Shown piece by piece: positions 52,799 to 58,165 of a DNA stretch of 64,000 bases. Within the stretch, counting starts at the first letter, position 1. Each line of letters starts with the position of its first letter. This stretch comes from Bacteroidales bacterium (lineage in GTDB: Bacteria; Bacteroidota; Bacteroidia; Bacteroidales; UBA10428): contig JAFGSZ010000080.1 in the NCBI GenBank assembly GCA_016934395.1, positions 1-64,000 on the forward strand, read 5' to 3'. The notes under the pieces are model-generated. The model made no database searches. It saw nothing but the letters and a program-made list of their open reading frames with translations, and was not told the origin of the DNA. A program made the position numbers and the translations under genes.

Positions 52799-53581
52799 TT
52801 ATTGTTTTTGAATCAAATCTTCAACTAAATTAGTTAATTCGACAAATTCCGAAACAGAAAGTTGTTCCGGTCGTTTTTGAAAAATTGGATTTTCCGTTTC
52901 CGAATATATTAAAAATGATTTAAGGGAGTTCCTCAACATTTTTCTTCTTTGGTTAAATGCAAGCTTTACAACCTTAAAAAAAAGCTCTTCATTACATAAC
53001 AATTTTTCAACAGTATTCCGTTTAAGTTTAATCACTGCTGATATAACATTAGGCGGCGGAGTAAATACCTGCGGATTTACTGAAAAAAGGTATTCTACAT
53101 CAAAATAGGCTTTTAAGAATACACTTAAAATTCCATATGTTTTACTCCCCGGAGGCGCGGCAAGTCTTTCGGCCACTTCCTTCTGGATCATACATACCAC
53201 TTCAGTAACAGATGCTCTGTATTCCAGAATTTTAAAAAAAATCTGGCTGGAAATATTATATGGAAAATTACCTATAACACAAAATGGCATTGAAAATATT
53301 TCTATCAGGTTAAAATTTAAAAAATCTCCATGATGCAGACGATTATTTAAAGATGGAAATTTTTCGGCCAGGGTATCAATTGCTCTTTTGTCAATTTCAA
53401 TACAATGCAAATCAATATTACCATTGTTAAGCATTATCCCGGTAAGGATTCCGGTGCCGGGTCCTATTTCCAGAACATTTGTTTTTGAATATACCCCAAG
53501 GGCATTAACAATCTTATTCGCAATGTTACTGTCATGCAAAAAATGTTGGCCAAGACTCTTTTTGGGTTTAATTTCGCTCAT
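52799..53581 (-). CDS. rsmA: 16S rRNA dimethyladenosine transferase
   Basis: This is a 260-residue enzyme (KsgA) that dimethylates two adjacent adenosines near the 3' end of 16S rRNA. The N-terminal KKSLGQHFLHDSNIA, SAM motif NVLEIGPGTGILTGI and catalytic GNFPYNISSQI (the usual NLPY reads NFPY) identify it. The C-terminal RRKMLRNSLK helix is typical. It forms a two-gene unit with mgtE. Confidence 0.95.
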   Translation of the reverse strand: MSEIKPKKSLGQHFLHDSNIANKIVNALGVYSKTNVLEIGPGTGILTGIMLNNGNIDLHCIEIDKRAIDTLAEKFPSLNNRLHHGDFLNFNLIEIFSMPFCVIGNFPYNISSQIFFKILEYRASVTEVVCMIQKEVAERLAAPPGSKTYGILSVFLKAYFDVEYLFSVNPQVFTPPPNVISAVIKLKRNTVEKLLCNEELFFKVVKLAFNQRRKMLRNSLKSFLIYSETENPIFQKRPEQLSVSEFVELTNLVEDLIQKQ

Positions 53582-53595
53582 ATTAATACACTGAA

Positions 53596-53629
53596 TTTGG
53601 TAAAAATAAAAATTAATTTGTTATCCTTG
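53596..53629 (+). promoter_or_regulatory. Possible promoter of the PatB-like aminotransferase gene
   Basis: TTTG (53596-53599) and TATCCTTG (53622-53629, one mismatch to TAnnTTTG) are separated by 22 nt, 65 bp before the ATG at 53695. Confidence 0.35.
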
Positions 53630-53694
53630 CTTTATAGCTTTAATAATAACAAAATCAGAATAGTCTAATTGTTGATCTGTAACGAGACACTTAT

Positions 53695-54876
53695 ATGAAT
53701 TATAACTTTGATGAAATAATCAGCAGAGAGAATACCGCAAGTGTAAAATATGATTTAAGAAAGCAATATTTCGGTTATTCGGATGTTTTTCCGATGTGGG
53801 TTGCAGATATGGATTTTAAGACCCCAGACTTTATAATTAAAGCCATAAAAAAACGACTTGATCATGAAATTCTTGGGTATACCTACAGACCCGAATCATT
53901 TAACTCTTCTGTAGTAAATTGGATTAAAGACCGGCACAACTGGAAAATTAAAAAGGAATGGATCAGTTTTTCACCCGGAATAGTCCCTGCCATCAACCTG
54001 ATTATACTTGCCCTGACTGAACCCGGAGATAAAATAATTGTACAACAACCTGTATACTTCCCTTTTTTTTCTGCCATAAAAAATCATGGACGGGTAGTGG
54101 TGAATAATCCTCTCACTCTCCGGGATGACCGGTATATTATGGATTTTGAAGATTTAAAAAGCAAAATCGATAAAGATGTTAAAATGCTGATTTTATGCAA
54201 TCCGCATAATCCAACCGGAAATGTATGGAAAAAGGAAGAGCTCGAACAACTGGCTAAAATATGTATTGAAAACAATATTCTTATAGTATCAGATGAGATC
54301 CATTCTGATCTGGTTTATGAAAAATTCAGGCATACTCCCCTGGCATCACTTTCAGAAGAAATTTCACAACAGGTTATTTCATGTTATGCGCCAAGTAAAA
54401 CCTTTAATCTTGCCGGCCTATCCACCTCAGTAATTGTATGCGCTAATCCGGATATTTTAAAACGATATAATAAAACTCTAGATGATATTCATGTAGGATC
54501 GGGAAATATTTTTGGGATGGTTGCACTTGAAGCGGCATATAACGGAGGAAAGGAATGGCTTGAAGCTCTGCTGGCCTATCTGCAAAAAAATGTTGCCTTT
54601 ATTAAAAGTTATTTTGAAGAAAACATACCAAAAATAAAACTTATTCCTCCTGAATCTACGTATATGGTATGGCTGGATTGCAGACAACTTAATTTATATA
54701 AAGAAGAATTAAAGAATTTTATGTTAAAAGAAGCCAAAATCGGACTTAGTGACGGGCCAATATTTGGCGCTGAAGGTATTGGATTTCAGCGGATGAATAT
54801 TGCATGTCCCAAGATTTTACTTGAAGAAGCCATTACAAACTTGTATCTTGCACTAAAAAGAATACATAAAATTTAA
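53695..54876 (+). CDS. PatB/MalY-type PLP-dependent aminotransferase or C-S lyase
   Basis: This is a 393-residue fold-type I PLP enzyme. It starts YNFDEIISRENTASVKYD, then VFPMWVADMDFKTPD as in cystathionine beta-lyases of the PatB/MalY group. PLP contacts are CNPHNPTGN and SDEIHSDLVY, and the Schiff-base lysine is in CYAPSKTFNLAGLSTS. It likely cleaves cystathionine or cysteine conjugates; an aminotransferase role is also possible. Monocistronic. Confidence 0.9.
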   Translation: MNYNFDEIISRENTASVKYDLRKQYFGYSDVFPMWVADMDFKTPDFIIKAIKKRLDHEILGYTYRPESFNSSVVNWIKDRHNWKIKKEWISFSPGIVPAINLIILALTEPGDKIIVQQPVYFPFFSAIKNHGRVVVNNPLTLRDDRYIMDFEDLKSKIDKDVKMLILCNPHNPTGNVWKKEELEQLAKICIENNILIVSDEIHSDLVYEKFRHTPLASLSEEISQQVISCYAPSKTFNLAGLSTSVIVCANPDILKRYNKTLDDIHVGSGNIFGMVALEAAYNGGKEWLEALLAYLQKNVAFIKSYFEENIPKIKLIPPESTYMVWLDCRQLNLYKEELKNFMLKEAKIGLSDGPIFGAEGIGFQRMNIACPKILLEEAITNLYLALKRIHKI

Positions 54877-54975: not shown

Positions 54976-56646
54976 ATGAAATTAAAAATTGCAGCTAAAA
55001 TAGGTATCGGTTACGGAATAATGACCTTGGCGCTAATTATTAATGCATTACTCACGAATAATGCATTAAGAAACAACCGAGAAGTAAATCAGAATATCAC
55101 GGATGTTTACACTCCTTCACTGGAATTTATTAATGATTTGTATTCCCGCATTAGCGATTCAAGAATGTTAATTAAATCCTGGGTATTTATAGATAAAATA
55201 TCAGATACTCCTGATAAACTTCGGCTTAAAAGCCTACATGAAATACAATATCCGGAATTGCACGATACGTTGCAATATTACAGCCAATTCTGGTCTGCAG
55301 AACAAAAGGAAACTCTGGGAAATATCGATGCTGCCATCAACGATACCCTGTTCCCTCTGCATAATTATGTGATGGAACAATTAAGTTCATTTGAAAGTTA
55401 TGATGATCCCTTTATAGTTTTCGAAGTTACACCAATGACTGAAGAAGGCGGAGATATTATGGTCTTAACCCAAAAAATACTTGACCAGATTTCGTCCTTT
55501 CAGCAAGAACTCGAAGAAATTACCAATAAGGCCAGAGCGGAGATGGTAAAATCTTTCGACAATTTCAGAACATTTATTTTCCTCATGGGTTTTGGAATGG
55601 TGTTAGCAGCTATAATCATTGGATATATTACTATTCAATCACTGGTAAATCCGATAAATAATACTAAAAATATCCTGCTGCAAATGAGTAAAGGAATTTT
55701 ACCAGAAGATAATCTTAAGGAAGGAAGTGATGAAACCGGACAAATGGCAAAAGCATTAAATATGCTCATCAGAAGCCTGAAAGAAATATCGAATTTTGCA
55801 ATTGAGATTGGTAAAGGTAATTTTAAGAGTGAATTCCAGCCTCTGAGCGAAGATGATGCTTTGGGAAATTCATTGCTTGAAATGCGCGAGGAATTGAATA
55901 AAGCCTCGAATGAAGAAGAAAAGCGTAAAGTTGAAGACAGTCATAGAAACTGGGCCTCCCAGGGAGTTGCACAGTTTAGTGATATCCTTAGAAAAAATGT
56001 GGACGATATTGAAGAATTATCCTATAATATTATCAGTAATCTTGTACAATATACAAATTCTAACCAGGGCGGAATATTTATTTTAAATGATAATGATCCT
56101 GGTAGTTTATTCCTTGAGATGACTGCATGTTATGCATTCGATCGAAGAAAATTTCTTGAGAAAAAAATTGAAATTGGTGAAGGGCTTGTCGGCAGATGTT
56201 ATCAGGAAAAAGAAAAAATATATCTTACAGACATCCCGAAAGATTATATAAAAATCACTTCAGGTTTAGGCGAGGATAATCCTAAAAGCTTATTGCTGGT
56301 ACCACTCATTTATAACGATCTTATTTATGGAATTATTGAAATAGCCTCTCTAAATCAGTATCAGGAATATGAAATTGAATTTATTGAACGTATTGCAGAA
56401 ATAATTGCCGCTACCATATCTACTGCAAAAAGTAATATACAAACAACTATCTTGTTGGAAAAATCTCAGCAACAGGCAGAAGAAATGGCAGCCCAGGAAG
56501 AAGAAATGCGGCAGAATATGGAAGAAATGCAGGCTACTCAGGAAGAATTACAACGAAAACAGGAAAGTATTATAAAAATTGCCGAAGAGGTATTTGAAGA
56601 AGAAGAAAAAATACGAGAATTTATTAAACGATACAAAGAGTTATAG
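54976..56646 (+). CDS. Membrane sensor with HAMP and GAF domains, no output domain
   Basis: This is a 556-residue protein. Membrane helix 1 (about 9-28) and helix 2 (about 197-222) flank a periplasmic all-helical domain of the four-helix-bundle type. A HAMP linker (about 223-275) and a helical connector lead to a GAF domain (about 345-490, TNSNQGGIFILND through GIIEIASLNQYQEYEIEFIERIAE). A C-terminal coiled coil rich in Glu, Gln and Met (about 490-556) ends the protein. No kinase, phosphatase, cyclase or methyl-accepting domain is present. The hydrogenase-like gene 73 bp downstream, also ending in a coiled coil, is the likely partner. Confidence 0.82.
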   Translation: MKLKIAAKIGIGYGIMTLALIINALLTNNALRNNREVNQNITDVYTPSLEFINDLYSRISDSRMLIKSWVFIDKISDTPDKLRLKSLHEIQYPELHDTLQYYSQFWSAEQKETLGNIDAAINDTLFPLHNYVMEQLSSFESYDDPFIVFEVTPMTEEGGDIMVLTQKILDQISSFQQELEEITNKARAEMVKSFDNFRTFIFLMGFGMVLAAIIIGYITIQSLVNPINNTKNILLQMSKGILPEDNLKEGSDETGQMAKALNMLIRSLKEISNFAIEIGKGNFKSEFQPLSEDDALGNSLLEMREELNKASNEEEKRKVEDSHRNWASQGVAQFSDILRKNVDDIEELSYNIISNLVQYTNSNQGGIFILNDNDPGSLFLEMTACYAFDRRKFLEKKIEIGEGLVGRCYQEKEKIYLTDIPKDYIKITSGLGEDNPKSLLLVPLIYNDLIYGIIEIASLNQYQEYEIEFIERIAEIIAATISTAKSNIQTTILLEKSQQQAEEMAAQEEEMRQNMEEMQATQEELQRKQESIIKIAEEVFEEEEKIREFIKRYKEL

Positions 56647-56719
56647 CTGTAAAAAATAAATTTATCATTAGTAGCCACATAAACGTTCTATTTTAGTTGT
56701 TTCATCTCTAATTTTATTT

Positions 56720-58165
56720 ATGGCCCTTCACCAGCTTATTTCAATTGATGAGGAAAAATGTGTAAACTGCCACCGTTGCATCTCTGCATGTCCAGTAAAA
56801 TTTCCTAACATCGGAACAAAAGATTTTATTGAATTAAACCACGATCTTTGTATCGGATGCGGAGCATGTATTAAAGTATGTACTCACGATGCACGATTTC
56901 CTGTAGATGATTTTACAGTTTCGATGGAAGCAATACAGAAAGGGGAAAAAGTAATCGCTATAATAGCGCCTGCGGTTGCTGCCAGTTTTCCGGATAATTA
57001 TTTAAACCTGAATGGCTGGCTAAAATCATTAGGTGTTGAAGCCTGTTTTGATGTTAGTTTTGGTGCCGAACTTACTGTAAAATCATATCTTGAATTTATT
57101 AAGACTAAAAAGCCAAATCTGGTAATTGCCCAGCCATGTCCGGCTATTGTAAACTATATACAGATTTATAAACCCGAATTAATACCCTATCTGGCTCCTG
57201 CAGACAGCCCCATGGTGCATGCAATGAAAATGATCCGAAAATACTATCCGGCTTATCAAAAGCACAAAATGATGGTGATTTCACCATGTATAGCGAAAAA
57301 AAGAGAATTTGAGGAAACCAAAACCGGGGATTTTAATGTTACAATTTATAGTCTGAAAAAGTTTTTTGAAAAAAATAATATCATCTTGCGCGATTACCCA
57401 CAAACCGATTACAACAATCATCCCGCAGAAAGAGCAGTTACATTTTCAAAACCCGGGGGACTGCTTGAAACAGTAGAAAGAGAAGTACCCGATATTAAAT
57501 ATAATTCCCGCAAAATTGAAGGAGTAGAAATAATCTACGAGTACCTCGATAAATTAGCTTCAAATCTTAAAGATCAGAAACATCCATTGCTAATCGATTG
57601 CCTGAATTGCGAACTTGGATGTAATGGAGGAACAGGTACTACTAACCAGGATAAATCACCGGATGAACTTGAATATTATATTAATAAACGAAGGGATGAA
57701 ATGAAAGCCCTTCATAAAACAGATGCTCAGAATCCCGGTTCGCTTGAAAAACTTAGAAAAAAAATTGACTCCTATTGGGAAAATAATTTATATACCAGGA
57801 CTTATAAAAATTTATCTGGTATTTTCTCTTCCGCTATAAACCAGCCCAAACAAAAAGATATCGATACCATTTTTAATTCGATGCATAAGTACGAAAAAGA
57901 AGACATAAAAAATTGTTCAAGCTGCGGATACAATGATTGCGAACTGATGTCTGTTGCAATTTTTAATAATCTGAATAAAAAAGAAAACTGTCACTTTTAT
58001 ATCCATCAGGAAAACGAAAGCCTTAAAGAAACTATGCAAGTTAAGCTTGCTGAACTCCAGGAGAAACAGCATGAAATGAAAAACCAAAAGACAGAAATGA
58101 TAGAAAAAGCTGAAGAGTTTTTGCAGGTACTTGAAAAATTACGTACTCTAAGTAAGAATATATAG
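56720..58165 (+). CDS. [FeFe]-hydrogenase-like iron-sulfur sensor protein
   Basis: This is a 481-residue protein. Two [4Fe-4S] ferredoxin motifs (C14-C17-C20-C24 and C44-C47-C50-C54) are followed by the large-subunit C-terminal domain of [FeFe] hydrogenases (about 77-330). H-cluster motifs are degenerate: PCP with C140 in place of the usual double-Cys TSCCP, SPCIAKKRE with C190, and NCELGCNGG with C297 and C301. A further Fe-S domain (NCSSCGYNDCELM...KKENC, about 395-425) and a C-terminal coiled coil end the protein. The layout resembles HydS-type H2 sensors, but there is no PAS or kinase domain. No maturation genes are in the window. Sensing of H2 or redox state is inferred. Confidence 0.85.
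   Translation: MALHQLISIDEEKCVNCHRCISACPVKFPNIGTKDFIELNHDLCIGCGACIKVCTHDARFPVDDFTVSMEAIQKGEKVIAIIAPAVAASFPDNYLNLNGWLKSLGVEACFDVSFGAELTVKSYLEFIKTKKPNLVIAQPCPAIVNYIQIYKPELIPYLAPADSPMVHAMKMIRKYYPAYQKHKMMVISPCIAKKREFEETKTGDFNVTIYSLKKFFEKNNIILRDYPQTDYNNHPAERAVTFSKPGGLLETVEREVPDIKYNSRKIEGVEIIYEYLDKLASNLKDQKHPLLIDCLNCELGCNGGTGTTNQDKSPDELEYYINKRRDEMKALHKTDAQNPGSLEKLRKKIDSYWENNLYTRTYKNLSGIFSSAINQPKQKDIDTIFNSMHKYEKEDIKNCSSCGYNDCELMSVAIFNNLNKKENCHFYIHQENESLKETMQVKLAELQEKQHEMKNQKTEMIEKAEEFLQVLEKLRTLSKNI

What the first reader, a model, noticed from the sequence alone, without database searches (positions are those of the whole stretch)
54976..58165. Membrane HAMP-GAF sensor paired with a kinase-less [FeFe]-hydrogenase-like protein
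Two adjacent plus-strand genes encode a membrane sensor with no output domain and a degenerate [FeFe]-hydrogenase-like protein with no PAS, kinase or phosphatase. HydS-type H2 sensors normally carry such an output. Here sensing and signalling may be split between two proteins. The L1 motif has one Cys (C140) where catalytic enzymes have two, which fits a sensor rather than a hydrogenase. The pair could be an unrecognised H2 or redox sensing module whose partner protein is encoded elsewhere.
Basis: partly seen in the sequence, partly recalled or inferred. Interest (0 to 1): 0.7.

Follow-up and report, generated by a model that had tools for sequence, protein, structure and literature searches.

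The report
Split hydrogen sensor on membrane receptor
Two neighbouring genes encode a hydrogenase-like protein that keeps its metal-cluster-binding cysteines but has no signalling domain and a membrane receptor that has none either; in all eight places examined where this short hydrogenase-like form has DNA in front of it, a receptor gene of this type lies directly upstream, so the two likely work together as a hydrogen or redox sensor whose output is predicted to be encoded elsewhere.

Summary
P1 (54976-56646) is a membrane HAMP-GAF-coil protein, P2 (56720-58165) a 2x[4Fe-4S] + H-domain + C-terminal FeS + helix protein; neither has an output domain. P2 keeps the four H-cluster cysteines, invariant in 54 of 54 aligned short forms (window included), and group D-type sensory features. 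Longer relatives carry MCP, kinase or SpoIIE outputs. In 8 of 8 short-form loci with upstream DNA the next gene upstream is a P1-type GAF-coil gene; in 0 of 63 other loci. The short forms, one excepted, are one side of a weakly supported branch, yet their GAF partners reject one clade (AU p 1.1e-7): repeated acquisition, pointing to function. P1 orthologues were read without P2; P1 has an altered C-terminal tail. Three of eight pairs have a signalling gene directly downstream, each different: CheR-CheB, histidine kinase, cyclase. Output is likely in trans and variable; for the window a CheR-CheB-SpoIIE-SiaC operon is a candidate. H2 sensing, binding and output are untested. New variant of sensory [FeFe] systems.

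The parts
54976..56646 (+). P1: membrane (helical bundle)-HAMP-GAF-coiled-coil protein, 556 aa, no output domain
55633..55782 (+). HAMP region of P1 (residues 220-269), below Pfam cut-off
   Evidence: 22.9 bits, cut-off 25
56005..56418 (+). GAF domain of P1 (residues 344-481)
   Evidence: fold matches to GAF domains
56452..56544 (+). conserved post-GAF coil of P1 (residues 493-523) with EEMQAT, a possible CheR-type methylation site (consensus recalled)
56545..56643 (+). C-terminal tail of P1 (residues 524-556); of the 120 proteins listed only P1 and P0122 have this tail type, 118 have ATQEQ
56720..58165 (+). P2: short sensory-type [FeFe]-hydrogenase-like protein, 481 aa, no output domain
56741..56893 (+). 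two N-terminal [4Fe-4S] motifs of P2 (residues 8-58)
56945..57631 (+). H-domain (Fe_hyd_lg_C, residues 76-304) with C140, C190, K193, C297, C301
57914..57991 (+). C-terminal Cx2Cx4Cx16C iron-sulphur motif (C399, C402, C407, C424)
   Evidence: motif named in PMC8163306
57992..58159 (+). C-terminal helix of P2 (residues 425-480), proposed contact to the P1 coil
   Evidence: predicted; contact inferred

Best explanation
P2 (56720-58165) is an [FeFe]-hydrogenase-type protein with an intact set of H-cluster cysteines that likely senses H2 or redox state and is predicted to pass the signal, through the helix that follows its C-terminal iron-sulphur motif, to the coiled coil of its neighbour P1 (54976-56646), a membrane HAMP-GAF receptor that has no output domain. 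SHOWN: domain make-up, the conserved ligand set, the recurrent adjacency, the absence of output domains, the polyphyly of the GAF partners. INFERRED: that the H-cluster is built (HydG is in the genome), that H2 is the signal, that the two coils bind, and that the output is in trans. The output seems to differ between genomes: CheR-CheB, a propeller histidine kinase and a cyclase gene lie directly downstream of the pair in G182, G153 and G378. For the window the candidate I commit to is the CheR-(GAF-coil-PAS)-CheR-CheB-GAF-(GAF-coil-PAS-SpoIIE)-DUF6272-SiaC operon at G000:C79, whose SpoIIE protein carries the same kind of post-GAF coil; CheR/CheB would tune the coils by methylation and the SpoIIE phosphatase would act on SiaC. 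Step-wise odds: P1 and P2 act together 0.8; P2 binds an H-cluster and responds to H2 0.65; output in this genome through the CheR/CheB-SpoIIE-SiaC route 0.22 (lowered from 0.3 after searches showed a kinase and a cyclase beside two other pairs). The figure below is for the two-protein sensory unit with output in trans.
For: Adjacency: 8 of 8 short-form loci (gaps -1 to 297 bp, same strand) against 0 of 63 other loci, in which no P1-like ORF was found anywhere in the held DNA; no other gene family was shared by more than two of the nine short-form loci compared. The short P2 forms used, all but L033, are one side of a branch, though with weak support, while the seven GAF partners in the tree need 6 changes and reject one clade, AU p 1.1e-7: repeated acquisition of the same kind of partner. 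Fused relatives carry MCPsignal, kinase or SpoIIE domains after the C-terminal FeS motif, so the missing part is the output. Three of eight pairs have a signalling gene directly downstream on the same strand: CheR-CheB (L163), histidine kinase (L164, 107 bp), cyclase (L165, 235 bp), as expected of an input unit with output in trans. H-cluster ligands, S188 (group D-type, PMC8163306 passages) and the Cx2Cx4Cx16C motif are kept in 120 of 120 proteins aligned. P1's tail differs from that of 118 of 120 listed proteins. Operon: CheR, CheR, CheB, GAF and SpoIIE genes are together in the five genomes looked at, G000, G002, G118, G139, G153; the SpoIIE protein has a similar coil with EExxAT.
Against: No binding, H2 response or H-cluster is shown. 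P1-like orthologues occur alone: none of 16 contexts read has P2 beside it (one, L217, ends 60 bp past P1), and six share patB-P1 order with the window without P2, so P1 has a job without P2. Only eight loci have upstream DNA and two of them (L010, L011) are near kin. The branch that unites the short forms in the thinned tree has support 33 only; L033 is outside it, and in the FastTree L165 is too. In the window, L010, L012 and L113 the next gene downstream is no signalling gene (NAD(P)-binding, TPR, CarbopepD_reg-like, pseudouridine synthase). Output route: P1-like genes co-occur with MCP genes (28 of 30 genomes) about as strongly as with the CheB (30 of 30), so co-occurrence is not specific; CheR/CheB lie beside one of eight pairs only, and two other pairs have a kinase or a cyclase instead. 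EExxAT is missing in the L113 partner.
Confidence: 0.6

Rival explanations
1. P2 signals through the genome's chemotaxis-type array: it works with the MCP-domain proteins and a CheA-like protein (C133, C147), as the fused MCP forms do, and P1 is only a neighbour.
For: Many fused relatives carry MCPsignal; the genome has three MCPsignal proteins and a gene that reads as CheA by eye.
Against: BLAST with the genome's three MCP-domain proteins and the CheA-like protein finds no MCP or CheA gene in the held DNA of the eight short-form loci (the one hit, in L164, is to a propeller part), while adjacency to a GAF-coil gene is 8 of 8. P1 has no MCPsignal hit up to E = 1.
Confidence: 0.12
2. P2 is a slow catalytic hydrogenase or electron-transfer protein and the neighbouring receptor merely reports on metabolism.
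For: Complete FeS and H-cluster ligand set; group D TamHydS does interconvert H2 and protons (PMC8163306, abstract passages).
Against: BLAST with this genome's HydB- and HydC-type subunits finds no such gene in the held DNA of the eight loci (ferredoxin genes were not searched); P139 and S188 replace the catalytic-type residues in 120 of 120; relatives are fused to signalling domains.
Confidence: 0.1
3. Chance: P2 was inserted next to a widespread solitary GAF protein and the adjacency means nothing.
For: P1-like orthologues sit without P2 in conserved gene order in other genomes; L010 and L011 are near kin.
Against: 8 of 8 against 0 of 63; 9 P1-like places in a 4.5 Mb genome, so a random neighbour is one well under 1 time in 100 (my estimate; some genomes of the order have more candidates); polyphyletic partners; changed P1 tail.
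Confidence: 0.05
4. The pair senses redox state, CO or O2 rather than H2, with the FeS clusters as the sensing part.
For: FeS motifs plus GAF; H2 response is nowhere shown.
Against: H-cluster ligands and K193 are invariant, which a pure FeS redox sensor would not need; the same genome's other HydS-like protein has lost all four ligands, so such loss is possible.
Confidence: 0.13

Closest known systems
TamHydS-type group D (M2e) [FeFe]-hydrogenases
   Same: Two N-terminal [4Fe-4S] motifs, H-domain, C-terminal Cx2Cx4Cx16C, no PAS, no C299 equivalent, Ser in place of M353, kinase-like gene separate (PMC8163306 passages)
   Different: P2 has a 56-residue C-terminal helix (predicted; TamHydS not compared) and stands beside a membrane HAMP-GAF receptor, not beside an ATPase and AraC gene; group placement by tree not tested
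HydDB group C2 'chemotactic (putative)' [FeFe]-hydrogenases
   Same: Same H-domain family: fused relatives of P2 at about 48-60% identity carry MCPsignal (table passage of PMC5037454)
   Different: P2 has lost or never had the MCP part; partner in trans is a GAF-coil protein without MCPsignal
TmHydS-type group C with PAS
   Same: Sensor and output can be on different proteins; own genome has a HydS-like PAS-type gene next to a SpoIIE-like gene at C87 (domains read by eye)
   Different: No PAS in P2; not in a hydrogenase operon
SiaABC(D) phosphoprotein pathway
   Same: SpoIIE phosphatase, DUF6272 and SiaC genes in the candidate output operon of this genome
   Different: Known from Pseudomonas biofilm control (search listing only); here joined to CheR/CheB and GAF proteins, link to P1/P2 inferred

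Membership tests
Sensory [FeFe]-hydrogenases (groups C/D) | four cysteines that bind the H-cluster | tested here: met
   C140, C190, C297, C301 invariant in 54 of 54 short forms, window included, and 120 of 120 incl. fused; positions matched to CpI from memory of the L1-L3 motifs
Sensory [FeFe]-hydrogenases (groups C/D) | C299-type proton-transfer cysteine absent | tested here: met
   P139 in 120 of 120; feature from PMC8163306
Sensory [FeFe]-hydrogenases (groups C/D) | C-terminal Cx2Cx4Cx16C motif | tested here: met
   C399/C402/C407/C424
Group D (M2e) | Ser/Thr in place of M353 and no PAS domain | tested here: met
   S188 in 120 of 120; no PAS in P2
Group D (M2e) | placement with group D in a tree with named reference enzymes | not tested
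   no TmHydS or TamHydS reference sequence was fetched
Groups C/D | H2 response of a bound H-cluster | not testable with these tools
   needs protein; HydG gene present in genome
HydDB C2 (MCP-linked) | MCP signalling domain fused or adjacent | tested here: not met
   no MCPsignal in P1 or P2; the three in the genome are on C133 and C147; none near the eight pairs
HydDB C1 / C3 (kinase- / phosphatase-linked) | kinase or phosphatase fused or adjacent | tested here: not met
   none in P1, P2 nor in the two flanking genes; but in G153 (L164) a histidine kinase gene follows the pair, and in L011 a SpoIIE gene lies 2.1 kb on, behind two opposite-strand genes
Catalytic group A [FeFe]-hydrogenase | group A model above its cut-off | tested here: not met
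   TIGR02512 107.9 bits, cut-off 405.95
Chemoreceptor (MCP) | MCPsignal hairpin in P1 | tested here: not met
   up to E = 1
SiaABC pathway | SpoIIE phosphatase, DUF6272 and SiaC together | tested here: met
   at G000:C79 only, not in the window; functional link to P1/P2 not tested

The most novel reading that the evidence does not exclude
GAF-coil receptors without output (P1 and its Cache, 7TMR and propeller-headed kin) form a receptor class of this order that works like chemoreceptors: CheR/CheB methylate an EExxAT site in the shared post-GAF coil and a coil-bearing SpoIIE phosphatase, or in other genomes a kinase or cyclase, reads it out. P2 plugs into this network as a soluble H2 co-receptor, and has done so repeatedly with different receptors, giving a fourth output type for sensory [FeFe]-hydrogenases beside kinase, MCP and phosphatase fusions.
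Probability: 0.22. Interest if true: 0.82.

Novelty: new variant of a known kind. Interest (0 to 1): 0.62.

Why it matters
How sensory [FeFe]-hydrogenases pass on a signal is unsolved; a 2026 paper introduces the C-terminal FeS-cluster domain of groups C and D as unexplored before its own mutants (PMC13104023, passages). A sensor whose output is a separate, repeatedly acquired receptor gives a clean two-part system in which cluster state, helix and partner can be varied apart. No paper on such a GAF-receptor pairing was seen in the listings (open-licence papers only).

Tried and rejected
Rejected: 'degenerate hydrogenase' (ligands intact). Rejected: truncated gene or frameshift of an MCP-fused form (54 of the 120 proteins listed, the window's included, have the same short form; convergent gene 31 bp downstream). 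Weakened: specific link of P1 to CheR/CheB by co-occurrence (P1 with CheB 30 of 30 against 59 of 168; P1 with MCP 28 of 30 against 45 of 168; CheB with MCP 65 of 89), since all three kinds cluster in the same genomes; relatedness of genomes was not corrected for, and I took the three 198-genome samples to be the same draw. The strict coil pattern was near the CheB gene in 3 of 30 loci only, though a BLAST hit to the P1 HAMP-GAF-coil core was in 27 of 30. Weakened by a late check: one single output route for all pairs, since a kinase and a cyclase gene follow two pairs. Class- and phylum-wide searches gave no further short form: class sample of 395 genomes, matches at E <= 1e-90 in G000 and G051 only; phylum sample of 395, matches in G000 and five genomes with long open frames (755-1349 aa). 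L033 (496 aa, among MCP forms, 178 bp upstream) was left out of the adjacency count. L165's partner was not in the GAF tree (coverage filter). Output classes come from my own patterns, backed by Pfam only where say so. In one search I left out 16 rows (seven long branches, nine near-copies). One search used 63 of 176 rows, 22 of them short. The full tree is FastTree with a distant outgroup; its root is not trusted. A promoter scan and Rfam search were not run.
Full report
WHAT IS THERE. The window is a 64 kb piece of a 4.5 Mb assembly (G000:C118). Two plus-strand genes, 73 bp apart, encode P1 (54976-56646) and P2 (56720-58165). P1 has a GAF domain and a sub-threshold HAMP hit and nothing else among Pfam hits up to E = 1; P2 has two [4Fe-4S] motifs, the [FeFe]-hydrogenase H-domain and a weak C-terminal FeS hit. 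AlphaFold2 gives P2 at mean pLDDT 90 with an unbroken helix 425-480 straight after the last cysteine (C424) of the C-terminal motif, and Foldseek matches it to solved [FeFe]-hydrogenases. P1 folds (pLDDT 83, pTM 0.40) as a helical bundle framed by long helices, then HAMP, GAF and a 92-residue helix; its best PDB matches are GAF domains.

NOT DEGENERATE. In an alignment of 54 short forms, the window's included, C140, C190, K193, C297, C301 and C399, C402, C407, C424 are invariant. In 120 proteins, fused forms included, they are kept in 120 of 120, with P139 at the C299 place and S188 at the M353 place (place names follow the CpI motifs, recalled, and PMC8163306, passages). Those passages list the loss of C299, Ser/Thr at 353, no PAS and Cx2Cx4Cx16C for group D. 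The genome has HydG (500 bits), so an H-cluster can likely be made. By contrast the genome's own 620-aa HydS-like protein (C87) has D, D, G, W at the four ligand places.

THE MISSING OUTPUT. P2's close kin, at about 47-62% identity, are of two kinds. Long ones carry MCPsignal (L013, L015, L020, L028), SpoIIE after PAS domains (L118, L119) or kinase parts (precomputed Pfam) after the C-terminal FeS motif. Short ones end there in a single helix: 54 of the 120 proteins listed, the window's own included. In an order-wide sample of 393 genomes 28 have a match at E <= 1e-90 and five have the short form with an intact frame: G000, G005, G153, G182, G378. HydDB already lists kinase-, MCP- and phosphatase-linked subtypes C1-C3 (table passage of PMC5037454), so the fusions are known in kind; a short form with a receptor in trans is not in the table passage that I saw.

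THE PARTNER. I examined 75 loci. Four could not be used (L013, L033 and L153 without an upstream ORF; L045 without a usable hit). Of the other 71, all eight short-form loci have a P1-type GAF gene as the next gene upstream on the same strand, with gaps of -1, 2, 11, 15, 27, 28, 73 and 297 bp. None of the 63 others does, and none of them has a P1-like ORF anywhere in the DNA held; four of these are cut so that their form is unknown (L041, L042, L044, L154), some hold only about 1.5 kb upstream, and three seem to be the same organism met twice (L037/L152, L043/L141, L019/L146). No other family was shared by more than two short-form loci among the nine compared. L010 and L011 are near kin.

REPEATED RECRUITMENT. 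The short P2 forms, L033 apart, are one side of a branch, though weakly supported (support 33 in a 63-row tree with 22 short forms). A FastTree of 176 rows plus outgroup needs three changes; there 58 short forms are parted from the fused ones at support 91, with L165 and L033 on the other side. The GAF cores of their partners are scattered: six changes, at least four forced by well-supported branches, and holding the seven rows together is rejected, p-AU 1.1e-7 (49 rows after 16 were dropped). The heads differ too: Cache in L010, Tll0287-like in L012, no recognised head in L165. The same sort of gene has thus come to stand in front of P2 several times, which chance or common descent alone does not explain.

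AGAINST A STRICT PAIR. P1-like orthologues are common (30 of 198 order genomes at E <= 1e-120). In 16 contexts read, none has P2 beside it (L217 ends 60 bp past P1), and in six (G002, G003, G139, G189, G085, G028) P1 follows the same aminotransferase gene as in the window. So in this lineage P2 likely joined a resident receptor. In line with that, window P1 and its nearest relative P0122 end in a different tail (after ATQEE) from the other 118 of 120 listed proteins, which read ATQEQ. Whether P0122 has a P2 neighbour could not be seen.

WHERE THE SIGNAL MAY GO. Shown: directly downstream of the pair, same strand, stand CheR and CheB in G182 (L163), a propeller-YYY histidine kinase in G153 (L164, 107 bp) and a cyclase with an HNOBA hit in G378 (L165, 235 bp); L165 also has a kinase-regulator pair about 6.5 kb away; L011 has a SpoIIE gene 2.1 kb on, behind two opposite-strand genes; the next gene is not a signalling gene in the window, L010, L012 and L113. 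So the pair looks like an input unit that works with different outputs. Inferred, for this genome: all nine P1-like places were scanned with Pfam and one has a catalytic output, a GAF-coil-PAS-PAS-SpoIIE protein at C79. It lies in an operon with two CheR, a CheB without receiver, a GAF-coil-PAS receptor, DUF6272 and SiaC. The CheR, CheR, CheB, GAF and SpoIIE genes are also together in G002, G139, G118 and G153, the last two without the receptor between the CheR genes; DUF6272 and SiaC were named by Pfam in G000 only. The SpoIIE coil resembles that of the receptors, with EExxAT in both (EExxA[ST] as a CheR site is recalled). In G153 the pair and this operon lie about 15 kb apart on one contig. 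Against it: P1-like genes co-occur as much with MCP genes as with this CheB, and CheR/CheB are beside one of eight pairs.

VERDICT. A real, recurrent, two-protein unit; a new variant of sensory [FeFe]-hydrogenase systems. Function, signal and output are predictions.

Noticed in passing
L006:16569-18431 (-), G000:C87:87060-88424: The genome's PAS-type HydS-like protein (620 aa, beside a SpoIIE-like gene) has lost all four H-cluster cysteines (D, D, G, W), while relatives in G071 and G042 keep them: a sensor that seems to have given up its cofactor.
   Followed up: partly
L006:6023-9431, G000:C87: A 453-aa kinase-less [FeFe] protein with intact ligands lies between small HATPase-like and DRTGG-like genes (labels by eye) just before a hydABC-type operon.
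   Followed up: no
L167, G000:C79:42000-56000: Operon of two CheR, REC-less CheB, GAF, SpoIIE, DUF6272, SiaC and (L253, G002) a TerB-ABC transporter protein; a CheR/CheB-linked SiaC pathway. The CheB matches in 89 of 198 order genomes, 24 of them without an MCP match.
   Followed up: partly
L168:6205-9606 (-), L172:2663-6172, L173:2460-5804: Three propeller-YYY-GAF-coil proteins built like hybrid two-component sensors but with no kinase hit; same kind of coil as P1.
   Followed up: partly
L170:4817-8104, G000:C147: A 1095-aa protein with propeller-type repeats (by eye) and a C-terminal MCPsignal domain.
   Followed up: no
L165:7651-8814 (-): A class III-type cyclase with a heme-NO-associated (HNOBA) hit directly downstream of the short [FeFe] gene in G378: a possible cyclic-nucleotide output of an [FeFe] sensor.
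   Followed up: partly
window 52799-54876: The patB-type aminotransferase gene keeps its place next to P1-like orthologues in six related genomes, ksgA nearby in four of them.
   Followed up: yes
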